The notes below the pieces were generated by a model. The model saw only the letters and a list, made by a program, of their open reading frames with translations. It did not search any database and was not told where the DNA came from. A DNA stretch of 59,542 bases from a virus, in the IMG/VR virus record IMGVR_UViG_3300008120_005569, positions 1 to 59,542 of that record; one strand, written 5' to 3'. This document shows, piece by piece, positions 25,089 to 44,415 of the stretch. The number at the start of each line of letters is the position of its first letter. Positions within the stretch are counted from its first letter, which is position 1. A program made the translations under genes and the position numbers.

Positions 25089-25577
25089 ATGGCTGAATTA
25101 CTTAATTCTAATGAGATATTTTTTACCCCATTTGAGCCAAAACTCCAAAACCGATTTATTATGTACATTGAGGGCGTTCCTTCTTGGTTAGTTAAGGGTG
25201 CGGGAAGACCAAACATTAACTTTAATCCAATCAAGTTAGATCACATCAACGTATATCGTAAAGTTAAAGGTAAAGGGGAATGGCAGGATCTAACCATTAA
25301 ACTATACGATCCTGTAGTGCCTTCGGGTGCTCAAGCGGTAATGGAATGGGTACGTCTTTCACACGAATCTGTGACGGGACGTGATGGTTATTCCGATTTC
25401 TACAAAAAGGATATTACATTCTTTACACTTGGTCCTGTAGGTGATAAAGTTGAAGAATGGACATTGAAGGGTGCATTTATTATTGCAACCACTTTTGGTG
25501 AAATGGATTGGGCAAATGATGCTTTCGTTGAGATTTCTCTCACATTAGCATACGATTATGCGATACTCCAATACTAA
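25089..25577 (+). CDS. 19: Tail tube protein (gp19-like)
   Basis: A 162-residue protein of the usual tube size. PFEPKLQNRFIMYIEGVPSW, the central WQDLTIKLYDPVVPSGAQAV segment and the C-terminal DDAFVEISLTLAYDYAI-type ending (here NDAFVEISLTLAYDYAILQY) match T4-type tube proteins. Hexamers stack inside the sheath to form the DNA channel. GGAGA precedes ATG 25089. It is bracketed by terminators, consistent with high-level independent expression. Confidence 0.95.
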   Translation: MAELLNSNEIFFTPFEPKLQNRFIMYIEGVPSWLVKGAGRPNINFNPIKLDHINVYRKVKGKGEWQDLTIKLYDPVVPSGAQAVMEWVRLSHESVTGRDGYSDFYKKDITFFTLGPVGDKVEEWTLKGAFIIATTFGEMDWANDAFVEISLTLAYDYAILQY

Positions 25578-26721: not shown

Positions 26722-27594
26722 ATGTCAAAAGTACCAAATGCTTACAACATTCCCGAAACTTTGAATGCCGAAATGAGTGATGCCGAAATAAAAGAGCGAT
26801 TACTGTCGGAATTTAAACAAACGGAAGTAAAAAAGAGTAATTTCCCAACAGAAGTTGTGCCACTACCATCACGTGGACTATTATACCCCGAAGGACATCC
26901 TTTAGCAGATGGTTTCATTGAAATGAAATACATGACTGCTAAAGAAGAAGATATTTTAACATCCCAAAATCTAATCAAGCAGGGTGTTGTGTTAGATAAA
27001 TTGTTTGAGTCTTTGATTGTTACACCCGTTAATTACAATGATATTTATAGCGGTGATAAGAACGCTATAATGGTTGCAGCTCGTCTATTAGGATATGGTA
27101 ATGACTATACCGTTGAATTGGAAGATCCATTTTCTCCAGGAACTAAACAAAAAGTAACAATAGATTTATCTCAAATCGAGCACAAGGAGGTCGATTACAG
27201 CTTATTTGAGAACAGAAAGAACGAATTTGACTTTGAACTTCCAAATTCAAAACGAGTAGTAACATTTAGACTTATGACTCATGCTTTAGAAAAACAAATA
27301 GAAACTGAAATTAAAGCGAGTAATAAGACTATAATAAAAACAGGTATTGATAGGGAATTAACAACAAGACTCAAACATATTATTATTGGCATTGATGGTG
27401 AAACAGGTCGTGCTGTTGTAAATAATTTCGTTGATAATGAATTATTTGCTGTAGATTCAAGAGCACTCCGCACATACATCAAAACAATATCTCCAGACTT
27501 AGATATGACATTCACATTCATATCAGAAGCCACTGGTGACGTAAAGGAGTTGGACATCCCGATGGATGTCTCCTTTTTTTGGCCTAACTCCTGA
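26722..27594 (+). CDS. 26: gp26-like baseplate / tail assembly chaperone (T4_baseplate family)
   Basis: A 290-residue protein. VVPLPSRGLLYPEGHPLADG, MKYMTAKEEDILTSQNLIKQ and DKNAIMVAARLLGYGNDY are the hallmarks of the T4 gp26 family (T4 baseplate protein domain). It precedes the tape measure gene, and its end overlaps a second frame at a T7 run, as in the G/GT tail chaperone arrangement of many phages. The last four residues (WPNS) are read only without frameshift. Start ATG 26722, AGGAAT upstream. Confidence 0.85.
   Translation: MSKVPNAYNIPETLNAEMSDAEIKERLLSEFKQTEVKKSNFPTEVVPLPSRGLLYPEGHPLADGFIEMKYMTAKEEDILTSQNLIKQGVVLDKLFESLIVTPVNYNDIYSGDKNAIMVAARLLGYGNDYTVELEDPFSPGTKQKVTIDLSQIEHKEVDYSLFENRKNEFDFELPNSKRVVTFRLMTHALEKQIETEIKASNKTIIKTGIDRELTTRLKHIIIGIDGETGRAVVNNFVDNELFAVDSRALRTYIKTISPDLDMTFTFISEATGDVKELDIPMDVSFFWPNS
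27552..27580 (+). other. Candidate frameshift / transcript-slippage site (hairpin plus T7)
   Basis: GGACATCC (27552-27559) pairs with GGATGTCT (27564-27571) around a 4-nt loop, followed by CC and seven T (27574-27580). A +1 ribosomal shift on TTT-TTT-T, or loss of one U during transcription, joins the gp26 frame to the next frame after Phe286. Confidence 0.55.
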
Positions 27595-27905: not shown

Positions 27906-30900
27906 ATGGCAAAAAAGAAAAATACAGGTAGACCAGCCCCAAAACCCACCCAACAAAAACAAAGTGGTTCTAATGAAAATGCTGAAAACGGTGACAGACA
28001 AAGTAAATTGTTAGACCTATTAAAACGCAGAAAAGAATTAGAAACTGAAATACTTGCATTAAAAAAACAGATATTTACTGAAGATAAAAATGATGCTGAA
28101 CAGATTGATAAGATTAATCGGTTTGAGGGAAAACGCGTTAAACTTACTAAAGAATATTTTGATTTATTAGAGAAGATAGCAAAGATACGAAAAGATGAAC
28201 GTGAAGAACTTGTTAAGATAGAAAAATTAGAGATAGATAAACAAAAACGTCAAAAGGAAGAAGAAAAAAGAATAAAAAGTATTCAAGAACACCATGAAGA
28301 AATCGGAGACTTACAAGAAAGGGCTCAAGTATTAATGCGTTCATTGAGTGAAGAAGCTCAAAAACAGGCAACGAGTTTAGGATTGACTGCTTCAAATGCA
28401 AAAACATTAGCGGAAGAAATAAAAGATGCAAACATACAAATAACAGATTCAGCTCAAATAAATAAATCATTTGAAAAATCAATGACATCTGTTATGAACA
28501 TCGCAAAAGAGATGGATGCTTTGGAAGGACGTATCGCTGAAAACATGCAAAATTCTGTTGATGGTCAATCTAAATCGTTAGACTTGTATGAAACAGAAAG
28601 AAATCTTAAAATGGCAATGGCTCAATTAGATTTGAATGCTAATAAATTGGGCGTTGAACGCTACATGGCATTAAAGAAAACAACTGATTCATTTGAAGGA
28701 CAGTTTAAACGAATAACAAAAGTTAATAATGCATTAAAAGATCAATCAAAAATTGTTGCTAAAAATAAAAAAGATACTGCTTCTGCCTCAAGTCCATCGG
28801 ATGTTAAATCTATGGAAAGTAATGCTGATAAAATGGGCACATCAATGGGTGATAGATTCAATAGGGCAATGGAACGAGGTGCGAGTAAAGTTGGTGGTTG
28901 GGTAGATACCATTGCAAATAAAATACGTGGTGCAATGGAGTGGGCGGTTGATAAAATAAAGAACGGAATAAAAACAGTATTCTCAGCGGTATGGGATTTT
29001 GTCAGTAAAATATTTTCTATTTTTTACGATTCTGTTATGGATTTGGATAAAAGGGCAGCTGAAACAAGTAGGATTTTTGGTGTTAATAGAAAAATGGCAT
29101 TTGATATGGAAAAGTCATTTGCAAAAATGGCATTATCAGCAAACATCATAGGACAAAATTCAGAACAATATAGGGAAACAACTTCATTTTTAGCAGATAC
29201 ATATGGACTTGGTGTTGAGACACTAATGGGTGGTGATGCACAAATTGGTATAATAAAAAATATGACAACCTTACGGGAACAGTTTCAATTAACAAATGAC
29301 GAAGCTAAAAACTTATTTGAGTTTAGTGTGTTAACCGGGACAAGTATGGACAAGTTAGCACAGGTTACTGACAAGATGAGTGGTGGTATAATGCAAACTC
29401 AACAGGCATTAAAAGCCATGGCAAATGTTCCCAAGATAATGCAATTAAATATAAAGACCGGTTTAGCGGGATTAGCTGCCTTTGCAGCTAAAGCAAAATT
29501 AATGGGGGTTGATTTTGGTAAGATACAACAAATGCAAGATTCTATGTTGGATATTGAATCTTCATTGGGAAAACAATTTGAATCCACCGCGATAACGGGC
29601 ATTCATATAGGTGACATGGACAAAATAAGAGCGGCTGCTCTTTATGGTGAAACCGATAAGATGTTTGATCTTATTATGAAAAATATTGGAACGGTAGATC
29701 AATTTAAGGGTCTTCGTGGTGGTGTTATCGGTCAAAAGGCATTTGCTGGACAGTTTGAAATGTCACGGGAAGAAATGATTGAAATGTTAACACGTGGTGA
29801 AATGCTTAAAAAATTAGGATTGTCCTTTGAAAAGGCTGCAAGACTCCAAGCTAAAAATGAAAAAGAACTACGTGCTATAGCTGAACAAGAAAGGAAAGCT
29901 GGTAATATTAACCGTGCAAACTTCATAGACAATATTGCAAATGAAAAAAAACACGCTGAGATTATGACGAAAATAAATGATAAAATAGAAAAAATGAAAA
30001 TGCAGTTTGCACCAGCGGCTAGTAGAATATTGGATCTTATACATAAGATATTGGATAGATTATTGAATAGCCCAATATTCGATAAAATAATGCAGTTTAT
30101 GAATAATGCTGTTGAGAAATTCGTAAAGAATTTAGATGATTTTCTATCTGGTAAAATATCGTTTAAGGATCTATTTTCAGGGGTAGATTTCGGTTTGGGT
30201 GCGTTATTTAAAGAAATATTCAATGATCCTGCAATAAAAGAGTTTGCAAATTCTTTAGGTTTGGATAAAATAAATATATCGTTAAAAGGATTAAAAGAGA
30301 CATTAGCTGGAATAGAAGAAAAGTTAGGAGTAGTAACTTGGCTATTTGATAATTGGGGAAAAGTTTTGGGCGTAGTTTCTGCCTTGATACTAACCAAATT
30401 TATAGGTATGGGTGGATTATTTAAAATGGCAGTCGGTGCTGGTGTTTTAGCTGGTGCAATGTATTTTCTAACTGATTCTTTTGAAAGATTAGCAAAAGTA
30501 AATGCTGACAATCTTAAAAATGTGGGAATAATAATGGGTGTTATGCTAGGTGGGTTAGTAGGATTAGGTGCGTTAACAGGTCAATTCCCACAAATTATTC
30601 TTGGCATAGTCATTATAGTAGCTTCGTTTAGACTATTGGTTGGTGCTATGCTTGCATTGGCAGAAGTTGCTGATAAATTAAAACCTGTATTTGACTTCTT
30701 ATTAGAACTTGGTAAACTTATATTACAACATTTTAAACAGATGCAAGATTTAGTATACAATTTAGTTAAACTACTTGCAGACTTTCTAATAGAAGCCGTA
30801 AAACAAGTTGGTATTTTAGTAGTAAACGTTTTAACTGCTATCGGTGACAATATGGTAAAAATAATAAGCAAAATACAACAAGCAGCTGAAACATTAATAC

Positions 30901-31796
30901 CAATATTCAGAGATGCTATTGTAGCTCTATTAAATTCGGTTGGGCAAGCTTTCAAAGTTGTTTTTGATTCCATATTTGGTGGTATAACTGCTGTAATAGA
31001 AAAGGCTTTAACAAAAGTAAATGAAGTTATTTATGTAATAAAAGATTCAATAGTAGCTGTAATAGAGTCCGTAAAGTCTGCTATAGACACATTAGCGGGT
31101 GCATTTATTCGTGTGTTGGATAAAGTAATAGAGTTAGTAAAATCAAATCCAGGTAATATAGTAAAGATTGCAGAGGCAATGGCGAGTATAGCTTGGAGTT
31201 TAGGAAAAATGTCATCGGGTATCTTCGGCAGTTCAGGTTCTAAGTTTGCTGAGTTTATGGAAATAGTGCATGTTGCAGACCCAGGAAGAATACAAGCGGT
31301 TGCAAATAGTATAAGAATGTTGACACAAGCTATTCGTGAGTTGAATGGTGCAATGGGTAACTTCAATACTAATAAATTAAACATGGTTGTTAGTAAAACA
31401 CAAAACACAACACCAATACGACCGGGTGGAACAAGTATATGGGGTGATTTTAAGTCAGGAATATCGAATCTTTGGAACAGTGCAACATCATTTTTATCAG
31501 GTGGTTCACAACAGAAGTCTACAAAAATGACATCACCACAAAGAAGTTTTTCTGTTGCTTCAAGTCCTGGACAAGCACAACAGCAACAATATACGCAGAC
31601 GCAAACCACAAACCCATCAACAAAAGAGATGGAAAAGAAGTTGGATACTATAATAAAAATATTGTCAAGTCAATCAACACAAACCGCTCAAATTAGATTC
31701 GGTGAAAAGTTTGTGGAAGAAGTTAAAGTACAATTGGGTAGAATTAGTGATGTTGATGGTAATATTGACTCTGCACGTGGTAGATTCATAAAATAA
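27906..31796 (+). CDS. 29: Tail tape measure protein
   Basis: A 1296-residue protein. Residues 1-300 are strongly charged coiled coil (KELETEILALKKQIFTEDKN). A central section holds amphipathic helices (AMEWAVDKIKNGIKTVFSAV). Hydrophobic membrane-like segments lie around 810-920 (WGKVLGVVSALILTKFIGMG, FPQIILGIVIIVASF). The Gln/Ser/Thr-rich C-terminal region is followed by a short helix (KKLDTIIKILSS). This coiled-coil plus hydrophobic layout, its size, and its position after the tail chaperones identify the tape measure, which sets tail length and may insert in the host membrane during ejection. gp29 equivalence is by role, not by sequence. Confidence 0.85.
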   Translation: MAKKKNTGRPAPKPTQQKQSGSNENAENGDRQSKLLDLLKRRKELETEILALKKQIFTEDKNDAEQIDKINRFEGKRVKLTKEYFDLLEKIAKIRKDEREELVKIEKLEIDKQKRQKEEEKRIKSIQEHHEEIGDLQERAQVLMRSLSEEAQKQATSLGLTASNAKTLAEEIKDANIQITDSAQINKSFEKSMTSVMNIAKEMDALEGRIAENMQNSVDGQSKSLDLYETERNLKMAMAQLDLNANKLGVERYMALKKTTDSFEGQFKRITKVNNALKDQSKIVAKNKKDTASASSPSDVKSMESNADKMGTSMGDRFNRAMERGASKVGGWVDTIANKIRGAMEWAVDKIKNGIKTVFSAVWDFVSKIFSIFYDSVMDLDKRAAETSRIFGVNRKMAFDMEKSFAKMALSANIIGQNSEQYRETTSFLADTYGLGVETLMGGDAQIGIIKNMTTLREQFQLTNDEAKNLFEFSVLTGTSMDKLAQVTDKMSGGIMQTQQALKAMANVPKIMQLNIKTGLAGLAAFAAKAKLMGVDFGKIQQMQDSMLDIESSLGKQFESTAITGIHIGDMDKIRAAALYGETDKMFDLIMKNIGTVDQFKGLRGGVIGQKAFAGQFEMSREEMIEMLTRGEMLKKLGLSFEKAARLQAKNEKELRAIAEQERKAGNINRANFIDNIANEKKHAEIMTKINDKIEKMKMQFAPAASRILDLIHKILDRLLNSPIFDKIMQFMNNAVEKFVKNLDDFLSGKISFKDLFSGVDFGLGALFKEIFNDPAIKEFANSLGLDKINISLKGLKETLAGIEEKLGVVTWLFDNWGKVLGVVSALILTKFIGMGGLFKMAVGAGVLAGAMYFLTDSFERLAKVNADNLKNVGIIMGVMLGGLVGLGALTGQFPQIILGIVIIVASFRLLVGAMLALAEVADKLKPVFDFLLELGKLILQHFKQMQDLVYNLVKLLADFLIEAVKQVGILVVNVLTAIGDNMVKIISKIQQAAETLIPIFRDAIVALLNSVGQAFKVVFDSIFGGITAVIEKALTKVNEVIYVIKDSIVAVIESVKSAIDTLAGAFIRVLDKVIELVKSNPGNIVKIAEAMASIAWSLGKMSSGIFGSSGSKFAEFMEIVHVADPGRIQAVANSIRMLTQAIRELNGAMGNFNTNKLNMVVSKTQNTTPIRPGGTSIWGDFKSGISNLWNSATSFLSGGSQQKSTKMTSPQRSFSVASSPGQAQQQQYTQTQTTNPSTKEMEKKLDTIIKILSSQSTQTAQIRFGEKFVEEVKVQLGRISDVDGNIDSARGRFIK

Positions 31797-31835: not shown

Positions 31836-34800
31836 ATGTCATTGTTAGACTTAAAATCAGATTTATCAAAATACCGTTGGAAAGGTCCAGGTGCCCCCGT
31901 AGATCCAAGCTCGAAAACACCTAGGGCAACGAGTTATGGCGATAACTTTGGTTCGTTTCAACCAATATCCAATACGTTTATAAAATCGGGTAATTTACCA
32001 AAAGTCGTTCAACCAAAGGAAGTTGATTTGATTGGGAAGTTAGATGACACCCGTTTGGATAATATAGTTACTGATATGCGTGAATCACAATTGGTTCAAC
32101 GTTTAGAAAATACAAGATTGGATGATATACAAAAACCACAAAATAGAAATATTCTTATTAATGCTGTTTCATCATTATCACCACAGGCAAAAGACGATGT
32201 TACAAACCAATTCAATAGAATAACAACGGAAGATGTTACATCCGAATTAGCAAAAATAAATCAAGATATATCTCAGACAAACATAACAAAATCAGATGTT
32301 GTGGTTTTGAAATCAACAACCGCTGGTGAAAACAACACAAGGTCTAATGTTGATATAATAAAGAGTGACAATCAACGTGGTAATGTACGTGATCCAAACG
32401 TTGTAATAAATAGGACACCATTATTCATAAATAGAGAAGCACAGTCTGCTGTAATAATAAAAGATTTAAGAACAACAACAGACAATATAACAGATCCTGG
32501 AACACCTGTAAACAAAGTTGTTCAAACGGTAGATAGACAAAATCAATCGCCATCAATAAACACCTACAATGATTTAAATGGTTCTATTGTTAATTTAGAG
32601 ACAAATAATTTAGTAGATGATACACAATTTGATATTGTTGGTACACCATCAAGATACAACACAGATTCCAAATTAGTATTGAAACAACGTGCAACTATTG
32701 ACACAACACGATACGATCAGGTATCCGATATATTGGGTGCGCCAAGTAATCTAAACTTGGATGACGTTAGCGAAACAAACCCAAGTGGAAGACATAACAC
32801 AGATAGAAACACGGAACTGTCAAATAAAAATGGCCAAGAAATAGACTTCTTTCCCAACACAAATGCAGAAGGGTTCACTAACAAAGTCCAATCGGGTGTA
32901 ACCGAATACGATTTGGATTCTTCGGTTTTAGGATTTGACGGTGTAACTGAAGCAAATTACTTTGATATAACAAATAGATTTACAACTGAAGGATTCCACG
33001 CATTTGCACAGACACGTGAAGACACGAAATTTAAAGATGGTGCTTCTGAGTTTGATTGGGATAAAAATGTACCACTATCGGATTACTTTGATACAAATAG
33101 AACCTATACAAGAAGTGGATTTCATTCGTTTGCACAAACAGGTGAGGCCACCAAGTATAAAGTAGAGTCGAGTATTTTCGATTGGGATGGTGTTAGAACA
33201 CAGTCACCATCGGTAAATTATTTTGACCTAACCAATAGATATACAACAGATGGATTTCACAACTTTGCAGTAGAGTATGATACAAAATACATAGTTGGTT
33301 CTTCTAGATTTGATTGGGACGGTTTACGTGGTAGTGCTCCATCTACAAATTATTTCGATGTTGCTAACATAAGTACATTTAGAGGATTTCACAATTTTGC
33401 AATAACTAAAGAACCAACATCATATCAAACAAGACTGTTAGGAAGTTCTTTAGTATTAACAGACAACGCTTCTTTATTGGATTGGGATGGATTAACAGTT
33501 CCAACCGTTAACTTTTTTGATTTAACAAATAGAAGCACATTTCGTGGATTTCATGCTTTTGCAACAACAAGAGAAGCTACTTCGTATCAAACATCACTGA
33601 TTGGTAGTTCTTTAGTTCTCACCAATAACGCCTCATTCTTGGATTGGGATGGGACTGTGAATAATGTACCCACTGTTAATTTCTTTGACCAAAATAATCT
33701 TAGAACATTTCGTGGTTTCCATTCATTTGCAACAACATTAGAACCAACTTCATATCAAAATGTTAGAGTTGGAACCGCGTTTACACTTAGAACAAATGCT
33801 ACGGTATTTGATTGGAATGGTGTACGTGTAAATGCTCCTGCTGTAAACTTCTTTGATCAAAATAATATTAGAACATTTAGAGGTTTTCATACCTTTGCAC
33901 AAACTCTTGAACCAACTTCATATCAAACAAATGCAATTGGAACTACATTAGCATTAAGACCAAACGCAACTGTATTTGATTGGAACGGTATACGTGTAAA
34001 TGCTCCTGCTGTAAATTTCTTTGATTTAACAAATCTACATACATTTAGAGGATTCCATACTTTCTCAACAACATTGGAACCAACTTCGTATATTCAGGGT
34101 GCATCATTTTTAGATTGGGATGGTCTAAGAGCCGCAGCTCCTGCCGTTGATTTCTTTCCATCTTATGCTGTTCCACGTGGATTCCACACATTTGCAAGAG
34201 AATATGATACGTCATATAGAAATATACAATTGGGTTTAACATCTGTATTAGATCCATTTGCTTCGTTTTTAGATTGGGATAGTCCGTTTTTAATAAATAC
34301 ACCACAACAACCAGGTGCTCCTGCTGTTAACTTCTTTGATTTAACTAATAGAAGTACAACTCGTGGTTTTCATCTATTTGCACAAACAGGTGAACCAACG
34401 TCATATAGAATACAAAGATTGGGACAAGGTGGATTTGGTTTAGATCCAAATGCTTCATTTTTAGATTGGACTGGTGGTAGACAAAACGCACCAACTGTAA
34501 ATTATTTTGCTAATTGGCCTGCTGGACCAACAACGAGAGGGTTCCATGCTTTTGCTCAGCAAGCTGAACCTACATCTTTTGCAACTGTTCAATCGGGAAA
34601 TGTAATAGCACTGAGAGCAAATACATCAAGATTTGATTGGAACGGTTCAAGTACATTTGCTCCAGCCGTTGATTTCTTTCCATCGTATGCTGTTCCACGT
34701 GGATTCCATACCTTTGCAAGAACATTTGACACATCGTATAGAACTACACAAGTTGGACTGACATCAGTATTAGATCCATTTGCTTCAGCATTTGATTGGG

Positions 34801-37800
34801 ATAGCCCATTCTTAGTAAATACAGCACAACAACCAGGTGCTCCTGCGGTTAACTTCTTTGATTTAGCAAACAGAAGTACAACTCGTGGATTCCATACATT
34901 TTCGCAAACAGGTGAACCAACATCATACCAAACAAGAAGATTGCAGGGTGGTGGATTTGGATTGACAGATAATGCTTCTTTCTTGGATTGGAATGGTGGA
35001 AGACAGAACGCTCCAACCGTTAACTTCTTCGATCCAAATAATATAAACACATTAGCGGGATTCCATTCGTTTGCAACAACACGTCAAAATACACGGTATA
35101 ATACTGGAACAATAGGTAACAACCTCTTAGCACCAGGTGCAACTACATTTGATTGGAACGGTTTGCGTAATAATGCTCCTGCTGTTAATTTCTTTGATTT
35201 AAACAATGTAAGCACCACACGTGGATTCCACACATTTGCTGACTTGAGTGGTGGAACAACCGCTTATAGATTGGCAGTAGGATTTAATCCAGTTTTGGGT
35301 GGTTCTGTAAACTTTTTAGCACCAGGTGCTACTAATTTTGATTGGGACGGTTTAGATCCATATTCAATTAGAACAACTAATTTCTTTGGATTCACAAACA
35401 CAACAAGATTTGGATTCATGGTGAACATGTCTCAATTCGATGGAACAGCCTATCCAATAATAAATCCAAGATTTAATGCTAATATACTTCGTATTCAAGG
35501 TGTAGGACAACGAGCTCAAAGATTTGGTTTGACAACATTTAGACAATTATTACAACCACTTCAAACAAGTAACTTAGAACAATTTGCACCCGCTACATTT
35601 GGTGGAAAAACTATATCCGGATTTAGGTCAACATTAGACATCCAAACACCGGCGGTAATACTACAAAAATTTAACTTGAATGTAGCAACTAATCGTGTTA
35701 GAATAAACCCAACTGCTCCTGGATTTACAAAGAGATATACTTCAGGTGGGGGTGTTGATATAAGACCATCAACCGTTGACGGAACAATTGAAAGTTGGGC
35801 TAATAGTAACTCATTACCACTACAAGTACCGTTTTCTGGAAATCAGTCAGATACATTAATAGAAAGACTACAAAAGAAATATAGATTAAGAGATGAGGCA
35901 TATAATACCGATATATTTGGATTAAGACAACCATTTGTAGATGATTCATTACATGGACCTGAATCGGTTTCTATGTTCCCGTTTGATGATGGTTTGGTTC
36001 GTGGTGGTATAGTAAACAACACAATAAGTGCTTTATTAGATTCAGTACGAATCGGTAAGTTTCTATTGTCGGGTAGAGGTATACTTTTCAACATAAAACA
36101 ATCAGGCCTTCAGGCTATGAATCCTAATGTTGATAAACCAACTGCTAATAATCCAATTGATAGTTTTTTAAATCTACCAAGCATAATATCAACGAAGGCA
36201 CCAAGTCAATTTTACAATCCACTTTCAATACCTAGAAATGTTTTAGAAGTCGGTCCTTTGGGTAATAGATACGCTCGTCATGGTATAATGATGGATGGTG
36301 TGTTCGGTAGATATGAACGTGTTGCTATAGACAGAGCTTTGAATTCAGATAAGTACAGTTACTTTGATGAATTTTCAGATTCAGCTGATAATAACTATAA
36401 TAGATTAATTGGTTTGGTTAAAGAGTTATTGCCAAATTCATACGATCCAATAAGACAGAACACATTACCAAAACAAAATACTCAGTTAGAAATAAATAGA
36501 ATATCATCGTCACACGGTGGGCCTGGATCTTTATTAGGATTTTTTGGTACAACAATTAATAGAGCAACTCATCCATTTAAGATTGTAAATTCAACCAATT
36601 ATATTCCAGAGCAAGTAAATGTAACTTTAGGATTAGACCGCGAAGTATTTTTCTCAGCGAGATATGACAGTGGAAACCGTCAGACTGATACATATTCTGA
36701 AATGTTATTACGTCAAATTGAAAAATATGACGGTGATATGCATGGTTTAATTTTAGATGCAGCTATGCTTTCTATAACACAAGTAGCTCCATCACCACGG
36801 AATGCAAGCACCACAGCCGATAGTCAACTCTATACACCATCATTTTCTGACAGTAGAAAAAATAAAATAAATTCTGCGGATTCAAAAATACAGTTAATAA
36901 CAAGACAACGTATTGGTGCATCTAAAGTTTTTGATTTTAAAAAACCAACTACAACGGAGAGATTTAAAGCTATAAACGGTGGTTACATACCATACCGAGA
37001 TAAAAATGAAAGTATATTTGACGAAATATTCTTTGTAGGGTCCAAAAATAAAAAAACATATTACGATAGACTATTCGGTGAAACAGATGGTGAATCAACA
37101 AAATACGGAAATGCGTATGGTGTTATGTTAGGTTCAACCGTTGGGATTGTATCATCAGGACTGCTGCCAAAATTTGTAGATGGAAGACAGATAATAGACA
37201 AAACAGAATTTAAAGTACCATTAAACAAATACGATAAACGTAGAATCGAAGAATTAGATGTCTTTGGTTTTAAACAAATACCAATAAAGGAAAGAGGACG
37301 CCGTGTTATAAGTGAGAACATAACACCAAGAAAAGATTTGTTGGAGTTAGCTTCTGAAACCTTTTTCACCTCAAATTTAATAAGAAGTGATGTAAATTTA
37401 ATATCAAGATTCTCATATGGCGATTATTTGTTGGGTAGATTGCCTGACGGAGAAACTCAACAAGTTGTACTAAACCCACAGGATCAAAATGAATTTTCTT
37501 TAGGTATATTAGGTTCATTAACGTTGAATCAAAAATTAGAGGGTATACATAGAAAATTTGAAGGTGATGTTGTAATAGAAGCTGAATACAATAAGATACC
37601 TATAAACGATAAAACAAAAACTCTTATTGAAAAATTAAAACCCTTTGAATTTATACCTCCAACAGTTAACAGTAGATATAAAGCTGTAACAAGTGAAAAT
37701 GCTTACCGAGAAGGTGAAAATCTTTATAGTGAGATGTATTTTGGAAGTGCAAAATCAAAATACGATGTATTGGTTGGTAAAACAGTAGACAAACTAAGTT

Positions 37801-40514
37801 ATGGTGCAAAATTAAAAGACGATTGGGCTACTAAAAATTCAAGAGTATATGGGTTAGTGTTAGCAGCTGCTACTTTAAATTTAAGAAAAACAGCGTCTTC
37901 ACCAAGAAATGCGTCTACAATAATAGTTGGTGGTCCAACTTGGGATTCTTATGTAAATGGTAATTTCGATGGGACAGCTGCAAATGAAGCATATCCACTC
38001 AGTGAAGTAGCAATTAACAGTGAAACTGTACAAACACTAAAAGCATTAAAAACATTTGATTTTAAATACCCAAATCCATATGAAAGGTTCAGTGCTTTAA
38101 GTGCTTTGGGTGAAAATTTTAGAGAGGGTAACAGATCTTTATCAAATGGACCTGATATTGATGAATCTGCTAAAAATGTAAATCCATTATTAAAGTACAA
38201 AACAACACGATATAGTCAATTAGGTGAGACACGGAGTTCAAATGCTTGGTGGAGTGCTTCTCAACCAACTGACTTTAGAGATAAGATAATAGATGGTACT
38301 GAGTATTTTTCAACCGATCCAAGAGTTGTAAATTATAAAAAATATGGAGTGGAATTAAGAGGCGATGGTACTGGATTCGGTGACCCAGGTCTTCCTGGAT
38401 ATAGAAAGAATTTACCGTACATTAGCAATATACATTATACTTCGGGTCTTTCACGTGCAGCTGCGGACTCATTTGCGAGTGGCAGTAAACAAAATAATCA
38501 GCCTGCTAATAGAAAATATGGTGCATATCCAAATACTAAACCCGAAATACTTAAACGAGAACAGGCTGAAAGAGAGAATGGTAATCCAACAGCAACTTTC
38601 TTCAGAGGCGATAGAATAAACATAATAGATTGGAAGCGGTCTGAACAGAATATAAATGTTAATAATGTTTACGAAAAAACTTCACCGTATGGAAATCAAA
38701 TGTTAGGTTCACAAGACCTAATACAGTTTTACTTCTCAGGTGTAGATTTGATTGCTTCTGAAAATAAGCCAACTGAAGCTATAGTATTTCGTGCTTACAT
38801 CGATACTATTTTGGATAACCACAAACCAACGTGGACTCCAATTAAATATATTGGTAGAGCCGATCCTGTTTATTCTTATGACAGTTACGAAAGAGAAATA
38901 TCATTTGGATTCACAGTACATACAGGAACTCGTGACGAATTAAAAGCAACATGGCGTAAATTAAACATGCTTGCTTCATGGACTACACCTGACTATGTAG
39001 ATCCAGGATTTATGAAGGCACCTATATGTAGATTAAACATCGGTAATCTTTATCGTAAATTCCCAGGATTTATAAGTTCACTGACGTATACTTTTGATAA
39101 TACAATGACTACGTGGGAAACTGCAAAATTAGCTGAAGATTTAAATATATCAGATCGTAATATAGGACCATTATCAAAACCAGGTGCTTTGGAATTGCCA
39201 AAAACTATTTTAGTTCAATGCACATTTGTGACATTTAACATATACAGACCACAGTGGGATTGTGTGTTCTATTCATTATTCGATGATACAACGGGTGGAA
39301 CATCCGTTGAAACAGGTTTGGTTCCAAGGAGTGATGACCGTGTTAATTACTTCAGAACACATGATGATTTACCAGTTACACATCCTATGAACGCTTTATT
39401 GTGTGCGGTAATACCACCGCCACCACCTCCACCAGTTCCTAAAAAGAGAACAATAACAGCAGGTGGACCTGGAGGCGAAGCAACAACACCACCACCAACA
39501 ACACCGCCACCAACAACGCCACCACCTACAACCGCTCCTCCTAATTTGCCGGAGAAGATTTGTATTTGCAAAATAGATTTTTGCTTTGATGAGGACCGTG
39601 AAATAACTCCCGAATCAAGACGAGCAGTAATTCAAGTTGCAAATTGGTTAAATGAATGTCCGAATATACGTGTCAATGTAAAGGCGTATTGTTCAAGAGA
39701 GGCTGATAACTTTGCTTATAATAAATTGTTATCTATGGCAAGAGCTGTAACGGTATGTAATTTGCTTATAGAAGAATGTGGAATAGCTTCTAATAGATTG
39801 GTTCCCGTTGGTATGGGATTTGGTGATTACAAAGAGGCATACAAACCAGAATCTAAAAATAGATGGGCAAAACAACAGAATAGACGAGTTATATTTGAGA
39901 TAATAGAAGGAGCTGATTCTTGTAACTATAAACCAAGTTTTGACTGTAACCCAGAACTACCCGAATGCGATAAGTCAGAATACTGTTACAGAAAAGATGG
40001 TACTAAGTTTTGGAGAGTTGGTCCACATTACTTCACAGGTAATAGATTTATAGAGGAGGGTGGAAAGAGTGTCGGTGAAACATACACAGGATGGCCAAAG
40101 AGCACTGGCCCAATACGTCCTCCAGGATTAAGTATCGGGGCGTTCAACTCCAAAACTAAATTAGAATTACCGTTTGCAGCCGATTTAACAAAGAGACTTG
40201 CTTGGCATAAATCATATAGAATACAAAATCCAGACGAGACTCAAGGCGTTGCTCAACAAACATATAACGTTTGGTTCGATCCATTATTAGATGCTAAACA
40301 GCATTTTCAATTGGAAGGTACTTCTGAAAAACCTGTGATAACAATTTCGGGTGGTGATACACCAATAGATATTTGGCGTCGTAGATATAATAGAGATACC
40401 AACATAAAGAATACAAAAGGAAAACAAACACACGTCAACACTGGATTTTCGGGTAAAAAGAAAGGTGAAGATGGATTGGATAATGTGACATACATAATAA
40501 ATCCAAATAAGTAA
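31836..40514 (+). CDS. Giant baseplate/tail protein: GFHxFA repeats, gp48/54-like domain, OmpA-like domain
   Basis: A 2892-residue protein. Residues 1-345 are Asn/Thr/Asp-rich. About 350-1190 hold fifteen copies of a (V/D)-x-F-FD...T-x-RGFHxFA...EPTSY module. About 1640-2050 hold a second duplicated module with SPRNAST. About 2280-2490 resemble T4-type gp48/gp54 baseplate-tube junction proteins (FRAYIDTILDNHKPTWTPIK, YIGRADPVYSYDSYEREISF, FRxGTRDELK-type TGTRDELKATWRKLNMLASW). After a proline/threonine linker, residues about 2573-2700 form an OmpA-like domain (ICKIDFCFDEDREITPESRR, VKAYCSREADNFAYNKLLSM, RLVPVGMGFGD, QQNRRVIFEI). It probably spans the baseplate and contacts peptidoglycan on attachment. 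Such a fusion is unusual; the role is inferred. Confidence 0.75.
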   Translation: MSLLDLKSDLSKYRWKGPGAPVDPSSKTPRATSYGDNFGSFQPISNTFIKSGNLPKVVQPKEVDLIGKLDDTRLDNIVTDMRESQLVQRLENTRLDDIQKPQNRNILINAVSSLSPQAKDDVTNQFNRITTEDVTSELAKINQDISQTNITKSDVVVLKSTTAGENNTRSNVDIIKSDNQRGNVRDPNVVINRTPLFINREAQSAVIIKDLRTTTDNITDPGTPVNKVVQTVDRQNQSPSINTYNDLNGSIVNLETNNLVDDTQFDIVGTPSRYNTDSKLVLKQRATIDTTRYDQVSDILGAPSNLNLDDVSETNPSGRHNTDRNTELSNKNGQEIDFFPNTNAEGFTNKVQSGVTEYDLDSSVLGFDGVTEANYFDITNRFTTEGFHAFAQTREDTKFKDGASEFDWDKNVPLSDYFDTNRTYTRSGFHSFAQTGEATKYKVESSIFDWDGVRTQSPSVNYFDLTNRYTTDGFHNFAVEYDTKYIVGSSRFDWDGLRGSAPSTNYFDVANISTFRGFHNFAITKEPTSYQTRLLGSSLVLTDNASLLDWDGLTVPTVNFFDLTNRSTFRGFHAFATTREATSYQTSLIGSSLVLTNNASFLDWDGTVNNVPTVNFFDQNNLRTFRGFHSFATTLEPTSYQNVRVGTAFTLRTNATVFDWNGVRVNAPAVNFFDQNNIRTFRGFHTFAQTLEPTSYQTNAIGTTLALRPNATVFDWNGIRVNAPAVNFFDLTNLHTFRGFHTFSTTLEPTSYIQGASFLDWDGLRAAAPAVDFFPSYAVPRGFHTFAREYDTSYRNIQLGLTSVLDPFASFLDWDSPFLINTPQQPGAPAVNFFDLTNRSTTRGFHLFAQTGEPTSYRIQRLGQGGFGLDPNASFLDWTGGRQNAPTVNYFANWPAGPTTRGFHAFAQQAEPTSFATVQSGNVIALRANTSRFDWNGSSTFAPAVDFFPSYAVPRGFHTFARTFDTSYRTTQVGLTSVLDPFASAFDWDSPFLVNTAQQPGAPAVNFFDLANRSTTRGFHTFSQTGEPTSYQTRRLQGGGFGLTDNASFLDWNGGRQNAPTVNFFDPNNINTLAGFHSFATTRQNTRYNTGTIGNNLLAPGATTFDWNGLRNNAPAVNFFDLNNVSTTRGFHTFADLSGGTTAYRLAVGFNPVLGGSVNFLAPGATNFDWDGLDPYSIRTTNFFGFTNTTRFGFMVNMSQFDGTAYPIINPRFNANILRIQGVGQRAQRFGLTTFRQLLQPLQTSNLEQFAPATFGGKTISGFRSTLDIQTPAVILQKFNLNVATNRVRINPTAPGFTKRYTSGGGVDIRPSTVDGTIESWANSNSLPLQVPFSGNQSDTLIERLQKKYRLRDEAYNTDIFGLRQPFVDDSLHGPESVSMFPFDDGLVRGGIVNNTISALLDSVRIGKFLLSGRGILFNIKQSGLQAMNPNVDKPTANNPIDSFLNLPSIISTKAPSQFYNPLSIPRNVLEVGPLGNRYARHGIMMDGVFGRYERVAIDRALNSDKYSYFDEFSDSADNNYNRLIGLVKELLPNSYDPIRQNTLPKQNTQLEINRISSSHGGPGSLLGFFGTTINRATHPFKIVNSTNYIPEQVNVTLGLDREVFFSARYDSGNRQTDTYSEMLLRQIEKYDGDMHGLILDAAMLSITQVAPSPRNASTTADSQLYTPSFSDSRKNKINSADSKIQLITRQRIGASKVFDFKKPTTTERFKAINGGYIPYRDKNESIFDEIFFVGSKNKKTYYDRLFGETDGESTKYGNAYGVMLGSTVGIVSSGLLPKFVDGRQIIDKTEFKVPLNKYDKRRIEELDVFGFKQIPIKERGRRVISENITPRKDLLELASETFFTSNLIRSDVNLISRFSYGDYLLGRLPDGETQQVVLNPQDQNEFSLGILGSLTLNQKLEGIHRKFEGDVVIEAEYNKIPINDKTKTLIEKLKPFEFIPPTVNSRYKAVTSENAYREGENLYSEMYFGSAKSKYDVLVGKTVDKLSYGAKLKDDWATKNSRVYGLVLAAATLNLRKTASSPRNASTIIVGGPTWDSYVNGNFDGTAANEAYPLSEVAINSETVQTLKALKTFDFKYPNPYERFSALSALGENFREGNRSLSNGPDIDESAKNVNPLLKYKTTRYSQLGETRSSNAWWSASQPTDFRDKIIDGTEYFSTDPRVVNYKKYGVELRGDGTGFGDPGLPGYRKNLPYISNIHYTSGLSRAAADSFASGSKQNNQPANRKYGAYPNTKPEILKREQAERENGNPTATFFRGDRINIIDWKRSEQNINVNNVYEKTSPYGNQMLGSQDLIQFYFSGVDLIASENKPTEAIVFRAYIDTILDNHKPTWTPIKYIGRADPVYSYDSYEREISFGFTVHTGTRDELKATWRKLNMLASWTTPDYVDPGFMKAPICRLNIGNLYRKFPGFISSLTYTFDNTMTTWETAKLAEDLNISDRNIGPLSKPGALELPKTILVQCTFVTFNIYRPQWDCVFYSLFDDTTGGTSVETGLVPRSDDRVNYFRTHDDLPVTHPMNALLCAVIPPPPPPPVPKKRTITAGGPGGEATTPPPTTPPPTTPPPTTAPPNLPEKICICKIDFCFDEDREITPESRRAVIQVANWLNECPNIRVNVKAYCSREADNFAYNKLLSMARAVTVCNLLIEECGIASNRLVPVGMGFGDYKEAYKPESKNRWAKQQNRRVIFEIIEGADSCNYKPSFDCNPELPECDKSEYCYRKDGTKFWRVGPHYFTGNRFIEEGGKSVGETYTGWPKSTGPIRPPGLSIGAFNSKTKLELPFAADLTKRLAWHKSYRIQNPDETQGVAQQTYNVWFDPLLDAKQHFQLEGTSEKPVITISGGDTPIDIWRRRYNRDTNIKNTKGKQTHVNTGFSGKKKGEDGLDNVTYIINPNK
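32880..35420 (+). repeat. Fifteen-copy GFHxFA protein repeat with internal block duplication
   Basis: Fifteen GFH(A/S/N/T/L)F(A/S) modules of about 45-70 residues, with degenerate flanking copies. The two-module block starting VPRGFHTFAR...TSVLDPFAS and ending GGFGL...RQNAPTVN occurs twice (about 34150-34520 and 34670-35030), showing a recent segmental duplication. Confidence 0.9.
39410..39545 (+). repeat. Proline/threonine linker repeats before the OmpA-like domain
   Basis: A run of six prolines (PPPPPP), then repeated PPPTT units encoded by ACCACCACCAACAAC-type 15-bp repeats. It is a rigid tether between the baseplate domain and the peptidoglycan-binding domain. Confidence 0.85.
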
Positions 40515-40537
40515 TATTTTAATTATAGGTGATATTT

Positions 40538-40870
40538 ATGGTAAAGAGATACCAAGATTCAAGATTATTGGAAAATATAAAGAAAATCGATTCACAGGGA
40601 AAAGAATACCACGTGAGACGTTTATCAACAATAATGTATCCCGAATTTCTAACTGATAATGATACTCAAATAATATCACAAGATGGTGATAGATTAGATC
40701 TTTTAGCAAAGGAATTTTACGGAGACGAAACTCTTTGGTATGTTATTGCAAGAGCAAATAATTTAGGAAAAGGCAGTATGTATGTTCCACCTGGCGAAAT
40801 AATACGAATACCATATGAAGACGCTATGGGTATTTCAGAAATAATGACGGAGTTCAATAGGAGTAGATAA
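40538..40870 (+). CDS. 53: LysM-like baseplate wedge protein (gp53-like)
   Basis: A 110-residue protein. ATG 40538 has AGGTGA (40527-40532) at proper spacing; the GTG at 40529 is not used. The C-terminal half, ISQDGDRLDLLAKEFYGDET, LWYVIARANNLG and MYVPPGEIIRIPYED, is a LysM-like fold as in T4 gp53 and other short baseplate proteins (x-x-GDRLDLLA-x-x-x-YG-x-x-x-LW-x-I-x-x-x-N). The preceding YPEFLTDNDTQII corresponds to the gp53 lead-in. In T4, gp53 cross-links baseplate wedges; the location between two giant baseplate proteins fits. Confidence 0.7.
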   Translation: MVKRYQDSRLLENIKKIDSQGKEYHVRRLSTIMYPEFLTDNDTQIISQDGDRLDLLAKEFYGDETLWYVIARANNLGKGSMYVPPGEIIRIPYEDAMGISEIMTEFNRSR

Positions 40871-40872
40871 GT

Positions 40873-43800
40873 ATGCCATACTATGAATCACCCGTAAATC
40901 GTTACATAAATCCGTTTTATTTAGAAGTATTTCCCGATATTAGAGTAGAAATGGAAAGTAGGGCTGGTGCCTACGCTTCAGAGGTACGCAGTACCAACAC
41001 CAAAAGCATATCATGGCCTTATCAAAAGATGCCTTGGGCACACATAACTGCCTATTATTGGGAAAACAAACAAAGAAAGGAATTTAAAATTGGTTTTGAA
41101 GAAGATAAAATAGGCAATTTAAATTCAAATGAACGTGGTAAATTATCTTTGTATGGGGAACAACGTAATCAACCAAAATATCCATTAGTGACTGGAATAG
41201 ATATTTCAAATCAAGGTTTACGTGGATCTTTGCTAAAGGGTAAATTCTCATTTGTATTTTTTCCCGAATTAACTTTGACGGGATTCGAGTTAGAAACCAT
41301 GCAACGAATATTGTTTACTCCTGGAAATGAAGTGCAAATAGCATTTGGTTGGAGTGAATATGCGGAAATTCCCGAAGTCAATAGTTTAGAATTTAAGGGC
41401 ATAATTTATGGATTTAATTGGTCATTCAATACCAACCTATCAATTTCAGCTGAAGTAGATATTGTTTCAGTAACCACTATTGCATTGGGGTTATCAGGTG
41501 ATCAGACAGTAGTTGAAACCGATCAAACTGATATTGTTAAATTAAATGATCCATTTTCAACGGAAATAAAAGGATTGAATCTAATATCTGTTATAGATAA
41601 AGACTTATCAATACAAACACAAACTCTAAAACAGGGTGAAATATCATATTATCCACTTGATAAAACACCATCAAAGTTGATGGATTACTTTGCTATATGT
41701 TTGCCATCGAGTGAAGTTGAAGAATTAGAACAGATAGTTATTAACATAACAGGTTCCGATGGTGGTGGTGGAACAGAAACAACGCCTACAGATGATGGTG
41801 TGATTGAAGGCGCTCCAACTGAAGGTGGTATAGTTGACGCTATTAAAAACGCATTCGGGTTTGGTGAGGGTGAAGAAAAGAAAAAGGGAAATGGTTATGA
41901 TTTAACAAAAGTAGATCCATTGGATTATGTGAATCAACACTTTTTTGTTCAAAATTCTAAGGAAGTTAACGAAGGAAAATTCACATATCATGTTACAAGT
42001 AGATATGGTCATTTTGCTAAACAGCATTTAAAAGATGATGATCCAAATAAAAAAGACGGAAATTATCCGGGTAAAAGTAATGATAATCAAACCTTTTCGA
42101 TACCAGAAACAGACATCGGCAAATCGAGTATAATAATATTAAAAGTAAAACCAAATTTCAAAGATACAGTTAAAGCTGTGTTAAAAGAAATAGCTATATC
42201 AAACCCAACCGTTGGTCCAGGTGGTAGTGATGATTATGGAAATTGGTCTTACGATAACTCAGGAACATTTAGAGTTTTAGATGTACAAAGAAATATTGCA
42301 GACTTTAAAGATAGTAATTATACAACTGGTGATGTACTGTACAAGGCTGGGTTTCAACCACGTTTAAGGACGGCTGGTGCAGTGTCTACACTTGGGTTAA
42401 GTGCATTTGTTAAAAGACTTAGTGACTATCAAGAAGATGGTGAACAGGAATATTACATAAAAATAGCTTATATGCCAAAACGCTATACCAAAAGCGAAAA
42501 GGCAAGAATAGCATTTTATTTTGAATTTTATAATCAATCTAACAACTTATTTCAAGGTGAATGGGTAACTATCCATTTAGAAGGGAAAACGAAGTCAATA
42601 GAAAGGTCTGATACGGTTGATTTTGGTAAACAAAAAATAAAAACAAATAGCAACCCAAGACCAATACAAATAAAAGTTGGCAAAGATAATGATAAACTTT
42701 TTTCAAGAATAGCACCTAAAGATGGATATTATATCGATGGTAAAAATGCTTCTGCTTTTAGTATTGTAAAATTTGAAAACAATACTATATCTAAAAATAA
42801 AGAAACGGAAGATACATTTTTTATACAGTTTTCTCCAAAAACTGAGGGGGATAAAGAAGCTGTTTTACGTATAAGAGTTGAAAATTTTAACACCAAAGGT
42901 CAATTTCAAACAACAACTTTCATGGAAAAGCGATTAGTTGGTAGAGCGGTTAAAACGGATGCTGAAGTGGATTCATTTGAAGGTGGTATAAAAAAAGAAA
43001 CAGATGCAACAGTTGATCCAAATGCAACAAATAATACACCGATAGAAACAGCAACACCTGATGGAACAACGCCTGATGGAACAACACCAGATGGGACAGC
43101 ACCTAATGGGGCAACACCCGATGGAACAACCGAACCAATTGTTGTTCGTGATAAGATTTTTTGGTATGTTAGATTGGGTTCATTAGTAAACTTTGCAAAT
43201 ATATTAGTATCAAGGTTTGAAGAAGACAATGTGGATAAAGATCTATTTTATAGTCTATTTACAATGCAGGCTTTCAATAATGAAACACAATACAACCCAT
43301 TAGTTAAATCTGCAAATCCTATAGATGTATTTTTCCCAGATAAAAATATGGGTGCATACGGCAGTATAGTACCATTCAATTCAGAAGGAACAAACCTTGT
43401 CGGTGAAAATCAAGATAATAACCAATTTTTACGTCATTTCGGTAGATGGAATTCCGAAAAGAACATTAGAGAAACAAGAGTGGAATCCGATGTTATTAAC
43501 CTTGGAAACATTTTAATCGGTGTTGATGTTATAAAAAGAATATACGGTACTTTTATTGATGATGGTGGAAAAAATATATCATTCAAAAACATAACAAAAT
43601 TTTTCGATGAAATATTAGGTTTGGTGAGTGCTGCTACAGGTGACATATATGAATTGACAGCTATACTTTTTGACGAACCCGAATCACTTGTAAAATCAAA
43701 ATTTGGTTACGGCTTTTCAGAAAAAAGACAAAGGGCTATATTATCAATAGAAGATACCAATTTGGCAAAAAAGGTAACACAATTAAACGGAGTTGATACT

Positions 43801-44415
43801 GTAGAACCGTTTTGGTTTGACGCAACCGTTATACGCCCGTTATTACGTAATGTGACTGTTGTTTCAAGACCATCAAAAGAGATGGCATCCGCTGCTTACA
43901 TAGCAGCAAGAGGTGGTACTGCGTTAATAAGTGGTCAAGGTGACGGTGCTGGAATCGTTAACTTGGACAACCAACTTAATTTGGGTGGGTATACTAACAT
44001 AAAAGAATATAGAGACGAATATAAAAAGACATTAGAAGAAATGCAGACTGCTGAAAGGACATTAGCAAGTTCAGGATGGAACTCAGCGTGGTCAGAAACA
44101 TATAGGGGATCACTCATAAAATACAAAAGATTGGCTTCAGGACTTCCACCCGATGAAGTTACCGATGCACATTGGTTGAATAAAGCTATCTACCCTATAG
44201 AATTTAGTGCAACAATAGATGGTATAAATGGTTTTAAATTCGGTGATGTTCTCAAAACATCACTTATACCCAAACACTACAATGAAGCATGGGATATAAC
44301 GTTTACAGTAACTAAAATAACACATAAAGTAACTCCTAGCACTTGGGAAACAACATTACAAACAGCTGCTAGATTAAGTCAATATGCACCTGGTTATGGA
44401 GATGAATCAAAATGA
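40873..44415 (+). CDS. Baseplate hub-like protein with an inserted ASH/HYDIN-like domain
   Basis: An 1180-residue protein. The N-terminal region (residues 100-215) has hub-like beta strands (VTGIDISNQGLRGSLLKGKF, NEVQIAFGWSEYAEIP, FNWSFNTNLSISAEVDIVSV). Residues about 575-690 form an ASPM/SPD-2/Hydin-like immunoglobulin domain (DTVDFGKQKIKTNSNPRPIQ, AFSIVKF, FFIQFSPKTEGDKEAVLRIR). A (TPDGT)n linker lies at about 727-752. The C-terminus (FSATIDGINGFKFGDVLKTS then LIPKHYNEAWDITFTVTKIT) is the FTIDGI-x-G-x-x-x-GD ending common to phage baseplate hubs. gp27-type hub function is inferred. It overlaps the next gene by ATGA. Confidence 0.65.
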   Translation: MPYYESPVNRYINPFYLEVFPDIRVEMESRAGAYASEVRSTNTKSISWPYQKMPWAHITAYYWENKQRKEFKIGFEEDKIGNLNSNERGKLSLYGEQRNQPKYPLVTGIDISNQGLRGSLLKGKFSFVFFPELTLTGFELETMQRILFTPGNEVQIAFGWSEYAEIPEVNSLEFKGIIYGFNWSFNTNLSISAEVDIVSVTTIALGLSGDQTVVETDQTDIVKLNDPFSTEIKGLNLISVIDKDLSIQTQTLKQGEISYYPLDKTPSKLMDYFAICLPSSEVEELEQIVINITGSDGGGGTETTPTDDGVIEGAPTEGGIVDAIKNAFGFGEGEEKKKGNGYDLTKVDPLDYVNQHFFVQNSKEVNEGKFTYHVTSRYGHFAKQHLKDDDPNKKDGNYPGKSNDNQTFSIPETDIGKSSIIILKVKPNFKDTVKAVLKEIAISNPTVGPGGSDDYGNWSYDNSGTFRVLDVQRNIADFKDSNYTTGDVLYKAGFQPRLRTAGAVSTLGLSAFVKRLSDYQEDGEQEYYIKIAYMPKRYTKSEKARIAFYFEFYNQSNNLFQGEWVTIHLEGKTKSIERSDTVDFGKQKIKTNSNPRPIQIKVGKDNDKLFSRIAPKDGYYIDGKNASAFSIVKFENNTISKNKETEDTFFIQFSPKTEGDKEAVLRIRVENFNTKGQFQTTTFMEKRLVGRAVKTDAEVDSFEGGIKKETDATVDPNATNNTPIETATPDGTTPDGTTPDGTAPNGATPDGTTEPIVVRDKIFWYVRLGSLVNFANILVSRFEEDNVDKDLFYSLFTMQAFNNETQYNPLVKSANPIDVFFPDKNMGAYGSIVPFNSEGTNLVGENQDNNQFLRHFGRWNSEKNIRETRVESDVINLGNILIGVDVIKRIYGTFIDDGGKNISFKNITKFFDEILGLVSAATGDIYELTAILFDEPESLVKSKFGYGFSEKRQRAILSIEDTNLAKKVTQLNGVDTVEPFWFDATVIRPLLRNVTVVSRPSKEMASAAYIAARGGTALISGQGDGAGIVNLDNQLNLGGYTNIKEYRDEYKKTLEEMQTAERTLASSGWNSAWSETYRGSLIKYKRLASGLPPDEVTDAHWLNKAIYPIEFSATIDGINGFKFGDVLKTSLIPKHYNEAWDITFTVTKITHKVTPSTWETTLQTAARLSQYAPGYGDESK
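43051..43130 (+). repeat. 15-bp tandem repeats encoding TPDGT linker
   Basis: ACACCTGATGGAACA-type units are repeated five times in frame with small changes (APNGA in one unit), forming a flexible linker. Confidence 0.85.

What the first reader, a model, noticed from the sequence alone, without database searches (positions are those of the whole stretch)
31836..40514. 2892-residue baseplate protein ending in an OmpA-like peptidoglycan-binding domain
One uninterrupted frame joins an N-terminal disordered region, fifteen GFHxFA repeats, a second repeat family, a gp48/gp54-like baseplate-tube junction domain (about 2280-2490), a Pro/Thr linker and an OmpA-C-like domain (about 2573-2700). In T4 the gp48/54 proteins are short and carry no such parts. 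The layout suggests a baseplate subunit that grips peptidoglycan when the tail contracts, or a length-setting scaffold around the hub.
Basis: partly seen in the sequence, partly recalled or inferred. Interest (0 to 1): 0.82.

Follow-up and report, generated by a model that had tools for sequence, protein, structure and literature searches.

The report
Giant repeat-armed phage tail-tube initiator
A phage known only from environmental sequence makes a 2,892-residue protein that probably starts its tail tube; it carries a long repeat arm at one end and, in its small clade only, a bacterial-type cell-wall-binding domain at the other, and the number of repeats tracks tail-ruler length across related phages.

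Summary
31836-40514 is one open frame of 2,892 aa with exactly 15 GFHxF[A/S] repeats, a fold match at about 2290-2500 to contractile-tail tube initiators (Afp7/Pvc7 type; gp48 models in BFVD; not T4 gp48 by sequence), a Pro/Thr linker, and an OmpA domain (Pfam 2588-2674, E=1.1e-8). It lies directly after the tape measure and before a LysM/gp53-like gene. It belongs to a large unannotated family (at least 554 IMG/VR matches; 716-aa and 2,255-aa members in isolated phages). The core is constant; the N-terminal arm is nearly always tandem repeats whose sequence changes between subfamilies; the C-terminal slot is optional. OmpA was found in only six phages, which also carry a 460-555 aa insert in the next gene. 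Three of four diaminopimelate-contact residues are invariant, but the Asp is Ser or Asn, so peptidoglycan gripping is plausible, not shown. New: 44-aa repeat number covaries with tape-measure length (45 phages, rho 0.86; phylogenetic contrasts r=0.51, p=0.0003). One close pair contradicts a strict ruler. Best reading: a tube initiator with a repeat arm and an added wall-binding or structural module; a new variant of a known kind.

The parts
31836..40514 (+). 2892-aa tail tube initiator with repeat arm and OmpA domain
31836..32045 (+). conserved N-terminal motif (residues 1-70, MSLLDLKSDLSKYR...)
   Evidence: shared by nearly all giants and several mid-sized members
32826..35354 (+). array of 16 units (residues 331-1173), base unit about 44 aa, 15 with GFHxF[A/S]
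   Evidence: AlphaFold2 pLDDT 32, no fold predicted
34102..34923 (+). two 300-nt blocks, 82% identical (34102-34401 and 34624-34923): segmental duplication inside the array
36042..36239 (+). conserved middle motif (residues 1403-1468, IGKFLLSGRGILFNIKQSGLQAMNPNVD...)
   Evidence: also in LR756508
36693..38165 (+). second, degenerate repeat-like region (residues 1620-2110), as a whole only in the window and L002
38601..39431 (+). tube-initiator core domain (residues 2256-2532)
39432..39560 (+). Pro/Thr linker (residues 2533-2575)
39561..39905 (+). OmpA-like domain (residues 2576-2690; Pfam 2588-2674); Ser2620 in place of the DAP-contact Asp, with Asn2629, Leu2632, Arg2636
39906..40511 (+). Cys-bearing C-terminal region of unknown fold, seen only in OmpA-bearing relatives
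27906..31796 (+). tape measure protein, 1296 aa
   Evidence: phrog_5493, E=9.9e-13
40529..40870 (+). LysM/gp53-like small baseplate protein, 113 aa
   Evidence: phrog_7145 baseplate wedge, E=7.6e-11; Phage_tail_X below cut-off
40873..44415 (+). hub-position protein, 1180 aa, with an insert at residues 287-745 (41731-43107); inserts of this size at this place were seen in OmpA-bearing phages
   Evidence: no useful family match
22542..24998 (+). tail sheath
   Evidence: phrog_23, E=1.3e-72
25089..25577 (+). tail tube
   Evidence: phrog_4542, E=5.9e-25
26722..27594 (+). T4 baseplate protein (PF12322) homologue

Best explanation
The gene encodes the tail tube initiator of a myovirus: the ring at the centre of the baseplate on which tube polymerisation starts and where the tape measure ends, working like T4 gp48/gp54, Mu gp43 or Afp7/Pvc7. 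Shown: position in the tail gene cluster, fold of the core, family-wide conservation, OmpA homology. Inferred: it forms six copies; its N-terminal repeat arm is an extended chain that associates with a tail part whose size follows tail length (tube, sheath or tape measure); and in this clade the C-terminus carries, on a flexible Pro/Thr tether, an OmpA domain that moves with the tube tip and binds the peptide stems of peptidoglycan during penetration, bracing the needle. The OmpA step and the arm's role are the least certain.
For: Tail-module order sheath, tube, PF12322-type protein, tape measure, this gene, LysM/gp53-like gene, hub-position gene is shared with Mel-JY01 and, in its core, with immuto and LR756508; T4 has gp48-gp54 directly after its tape measure gp29. 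The top Foldseek hits of the AlphaFold2 core (confident stretches about 85-92 pLDDT) are contractile-tail baseplate chains: PVC, AFP, Anabaena, Streptomyces and Algoriphagus CIS, A-1(L) 'baseplate-initiators', phiCD508, R2 pyocin, E=3.5e-5 to 1e-3, probability 1.00; BFVD hits include 'Contractile injection system tube protein N-terminal domain' and 'Baseplate tail-tube protein gp48'. At least 554 IMG/VR relatives. OmpA Pfam E=1.1e-8, 3.1e-13 in L002; N, L and R of the DAP site invariant in all six OmpA copies (site defined in PMC8253398). Repeat number against tape-measure length: rho 0.86, contrasts r=0.51, p=0.0003, sign-flip p=0.003.
Against: Foldseek TM-scores are modest (up to 0.49 on the target for CIS initiators) and no sequence-level link to T4 gp48 was found. 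The DAP-contact Asp is Ser or Asn in all six copies. OmpA is absent from the other distinct members examined, so it is not part of the core job. No proteomics or structure of a virion of this family was found. The repeat array has no predicted fold.
Confidence: 0.6

Rival explanations
1. The OmpA domain is a structural module, as LysM is thought to be in Mu gp43: it packs against wedges or the enlarged hub-position protein and never binds peptidoglycan.
For: LysM, a wall-binding fold, sits in the tube initiators of Mu, Milano, A-1(L) and R2 pyocin and is regarded in Mu as a structural component (PMC11915804). The DAP-contact Asp is lost in all six copies. OmpA presence coincides with a 460-555 aa insert in the next gene: 1180-1350 aa in 5 of 5 complete copies against 610-801 aa in the 51 others, as expected of partners.
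Against: The N, L and R contacts are invariant across copies only 34-55% identical to the window's. FopA (6U83) also reads Ser near that site in the HMMER alignment and is assumed in PMC9342783 to reach peptidoglycan, though no binding assay was seen there. The coincidence with the insert may be one event in one clade.
Confidence: 0.35
2. The repeat arm is a second length-linked element: a sleeve or binding strand running along the tube or tape measure, each repeat covering a fixed stretch, so repeat number must follow tail length.
For: Repeat count tracks tape-measure length with phylogenetic control on two different trees (r=0.51 on each) and survives dropping influential tips; the non-repeat length does not reach significance (r=0.25, p=0.09; r=0.27, p=0.07). 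Association is a little stronger with repeat number than with repeat-region length (r=0.51 against 0.40).
Against: L161 and L165 have tape measures 89% identical and of nearly equal length (1289, 1293) but 13 against 10 repeats. Tape-measure differences in the closest pairs are partly low-complexity linkers. 16-20 repeats are too few for one per tube ring of a tail ruled by about 1300 residues (inference). In members without GFH repeats, whole-protein length does not visibly follow tape-measure length.
Confidence: 0.2
3. The repeat arm is a surface adhesin-like or whisker-like appendage whose repeats turn over by recombination.
For: Fast turnover: nearly identical units in L003, a 300-nt duplication in the window, unrelated repeats in other subfamilies; Peptidase_S74, a chaperone typical of fibres and spikes, occurs at the C-terminus of two relatives.
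Against: Would not predict repeat number tracking tape-measure length; no adhesin family match.
Confidence: 0.25
4. The frame is an assembly artefact or a fusion of neighbouring genes.
For: Very long, repetitive ORF.
Against: Homologous giants of 1.8-3.1 kaa in dozens of contigs and in isolated Mel-JY01; identical in a second contig.
Confidence: 0.01

Closest known systems
Contractile-tail tube initiators: Afp7/Pvc7, Mu gp43, R2 pyocin and A-1(L) initiators
   Same: Fold of the core, position next to the tape measure, a wall-binding-fold module (LysM) on the same or the adjacent protein
   Different: The matched PDB chains are about 130-450 aa; no repeat arm of this kind; LysM here is a separate 113-aa gene; OmpA is additional
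T4 gp48/gp54 (with gp53)
   Same: Gene after the tape measure; BFVD models named gp48 or tail tube cap match the core
   Different: T4 gp48 is 364 aa, gp54 320 aa; no detectable sequence similarity of gp48 to the core profile
Microcystis phage Mel-JY01 WWT39329.1 (2255 aa, hypothetical protein)
   Same: Same N-terminus, GFH repeats (22 units), middle and core; same gene order
   Different: No OmpA; the next gene is 671 aa, without the insert
Flavobacterium phage immuto gp236 (716 aa, hypothetical protein)
   Same: Same position and core domain
   Different: No GFH repeats, no OmpA
OmpA/Pal/MotB/TagL wall-anchoring domains
   Same: Pfam OmpA, N-L-R contact residues, NRR end motif in five of six; TagL anchors a contractile apparatus to the wall
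   Different: Contact Asp replaced by Ser or Asn; sits on a phage tube initiator
OmpA proteins of Lak megaphages (PHROG 7897 match)
   Same: OmpA domain encoded by a phage
   Different: Fused to an NMT1-like substrate-binding domain near an ABC transporter gene; no sign of a tail protein

Membership tests
Contractile-tail tube initiator | Tube-like beta fold of the core | tested here: met
   Foldseek E=3.5e-5 to PVC/AFP baseplate chains, probability 1.00; BFVD CIS tube N-terminal and gp48 models; TM-scores modest
Contractile-tail tube initiator | Gene beside the tape measure in the tail module | tested here: met
Contractile-tail tube initiator | LysM or BH1a-type companion | tested here: met
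   113-aa LysM/gp53-like gene directly downstream
Contractile-tail tube initiator | Hexameric ring at the tube base of the virion | not testable with these tools
   no virion structure
T4 gp48 orthologue | Sequence homology to T4 gp48 | tested here: not met
   hhalign probability 0.2; gp54 was not compared
OmpA-like domain | Pfam OmpA above its curated cut-off | tested here: met
   35.7 against 27.2 bits; also in L002, L003, L013, L017
OmpA-like domain | OmpA fold | not tested
   inferred from sequence match to solved OmpA domains; no model was made of this domain
OmpA-like domain | DAP-contact Asn, Leu, Arg | tested here: met
   invariant in six copies; site from PMC8253398
OmpA-like domain | DAP-contact Asp (a functional residue, not a condition of family membership: FopA-CTD 6U83 appears to have Ser there) | tested here: not met
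   Ser in 5, Asn in 1
OmpA-like domain | Binds peptidoglycan | not testable with these tools
   needs a sacculus pull-down
Tape measure / ruler protein | Length sets tail length | tested here: inconclusive
   Repeat number covaries with the tape measure, but L161/L165 contradict a strict rule
Tape measure / ruler protein | Long alpha-helical chain | tested here: inconclusive
   No long helix in the modelled array, but model confidence is only 32

The most novel reading that the evidence does not exclude
The repeat arm of a tube initiator is a second, tail-length-associated element in contractile phages: its repeat number co-evolves with the tape measure because the repeats line or clamp a length-dependent part of the tail, and one clade has coupled this to a peptidoglycan anchor.
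Probability: 0.18. Interest if true: 0.85.

Novelty: new variant of a known kind. Interest (0 to 1): 0.6.

Why it matters
Known tube initiators are small. Here is a large unannotated family in which one carries about 9-22 copies of a 44-residue unit whose number tracks the tape measure, which bears on how tail length is set or accompanied. The OmpA graft resembles in logic the TagL wall anchor of the T6SS, here carried by a phage particle, and makes wall-bracing by a contractile needle directly testable.

Tried and rejected
Sequence searches of the core against Pfam, PHROGs and PDB: nothing usable. HH comparison with T4 gp48: nothing. AlphaFold2 of the repeat array: pLDDT 32, so it was not searched by fold. 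Pattern scans of GTDB genomes with the OmpA and core profiles: no hits, so no host inferred. tblastn of the window OmpA domain in named phages: nothing; the L002 copy finds Lak megaphage NMT1-OmpA proteins, rejected as a different system. Tape-measure alignments of close pairs, to see whether indels come in fixed steps: they do not. Hub-position protein: no useful database match, so its role rests on position only. No paper on Mel-JY01 or on this protein family was found in the open library. Artefact or gene fusion: rejected because homologous giants are common.

Full report
Observation. The frame 31836-40514 is real and complete, 2892 aa, and occurs identically in a second contig. Exactly 15 GFHxF[A/S] motifs are present; an iterated profile finds 16 units at residues 331-1173. 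The second repeat family is only weakly supported, and its region is shared as a whole with L002 alone. The OmpA domain is above Pfam's cut-off, and a six-sequence profile matches solved OmpA domains down to E=2.7e-13.

Neighbourhood. Upstream lie sheath, tube, an epimerase-like gene, a PF12322 baseplate homologue and the tape measure; downstream a 113-aa LysM/gp53-like gene and a hub-position protein. The tail-module order is shared with Microcystis phage Mel-JY01 (2255-aa counterpart, no OmpA) and, in its core, with Flavobacterium phage immuto (716 aa) and LR756508 (1579 aa). T4 places gp48-gp54 directly after its tape measure.

Core domain. Profile scans found at least 554 relatives in IMG/VR, a lower bound. 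Sequence libraries do not name the core and T4 gp48 does not align. The AlphaFold2 model of residues 2110-2545 (mean pLDDT 74, confident stretches about 85-92) has contractile-tail baseplate chains as its top matches and, in BFVD, CIS-tube and gp48 models among its hits. TM-scores are modest, so I claim the class (tube initiator), not orthology to T4 gp48.

Architecture across the family. In 70 distinct members the core is constant and complete proteins run from 639 to 3136 aa. Members with the GFH array have about 9-22 units. Of twelve members without it, eleven carry other N-terminal repeats well above shuffled controls, so a repeat arm is conserved in kind, not in sequence. The C-terminal slot holds OmpA in six phages, Peptidase_S74 in at least two, and otherwise short or low-complexity tails.

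OmpA. TagL contacts DAP through Asp486, Asn494, Leu497 and Arg501 (PMC8253398). In all six phage copies Asn, Leu and Arg are invariant; the Asp is Ser in five and Asn in one. In the window these are Ser2620, Asn2629, Leu2632 and Arg2636, with one extra residue in the loop. FopA-CTD (6U83) also appears to have Ser at the aligned site and is assumed to meet peptidoglycan (PMC9342783). So the domain may bind the wall, but sequence does not prove it. Precedent for a structural role: the LysM of Mu gp43 (PMC11915804). OmpA-bearing phages also have a 460-555 aa insert in the next gene: 1180-1350 aa in 5 of 5 complete copies against 610-801 aa in 51 others. This may be one evolutionary event.

Repeat number and tape measure. 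In 45 distinct phages with both genes complete, repeat number follows tape-measure length (rho 0.86). On a tree of the core domain, independent contrasts give r=0.51, p=0.0003, sign-flip p=0.003; on a tape-measure tree r=0.51. Dropping any single tip leaves r at or above 0.46. The non-repeat part of the same protein gives r=0.25 (p=0.09) and 0.27 (p=0.07), weaker but not zero. Against a strict ruler: L161 and L165 differ by three repeats with nearly equal tape measures, close-pair indels are irregular, and members without GFH repeats show no such trend in whole-protein length. The correlation was found during the analysis, several measures were tried (repeat number, repeat length, non-repeat length, total length; repeat counting was refined once), and it deserves an independent sample.

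Verdict. A tube initiator with a repeat arm and, in one clade, an OmpA module: a new variant of a known kind. The wall-gripping reading is plausible (about 0.5), the structural reading is its main rival, and the length-linked arm is the most novel reading not excluded.

Noticed in passing
window 25683-26654: A nucleotide-sugar epimerase gene (phrog_540, E=4.4e-93) sits between the tail tube gene and the PF12322 baseplate gene; similarly placed ORFs of 321-323 aa with a similar start occur in L002 and L003 but not in Mel-JY01.
   Followed up: partly
window 41731-43107: 460-aa insert in the hub-position protein, with no BLAST relative of the insert as a whole among the loci held; other OmpA-bearing phages have 525-555 aa inserts at the same place.
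   Followed up: partly
L056 and L060, C-terminal tails: These relatives end in a Peptidase_S74 (endosialidase chaperone) domain in the slot where the window has OmpA.
   Followed up: partly
window 34102-34401 and 34624-34923: 300-nt duplication at 82% identity inside the repeat array, a sign of repeat turnover.
   Followed up: no
L230:10678-12267 (Lak-A1): Prevotella megaphage encodes an NMT1-like substrate-binding domain fused to OmpA, close to an ABC transporter ATPase gene.
   Followed up: partly
L014:1812-4936: The tape measure appears as two adjacent ORFs (657 and 382 aa), a split gene or a frameshift.
   Followed up: no
window 32013-32223 (residues 60-129 of the protein): Short KLxxTxLDDI-like motifs are repeated in the N-terminal region, and similar ones occur in relatives.
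   Followed up: no
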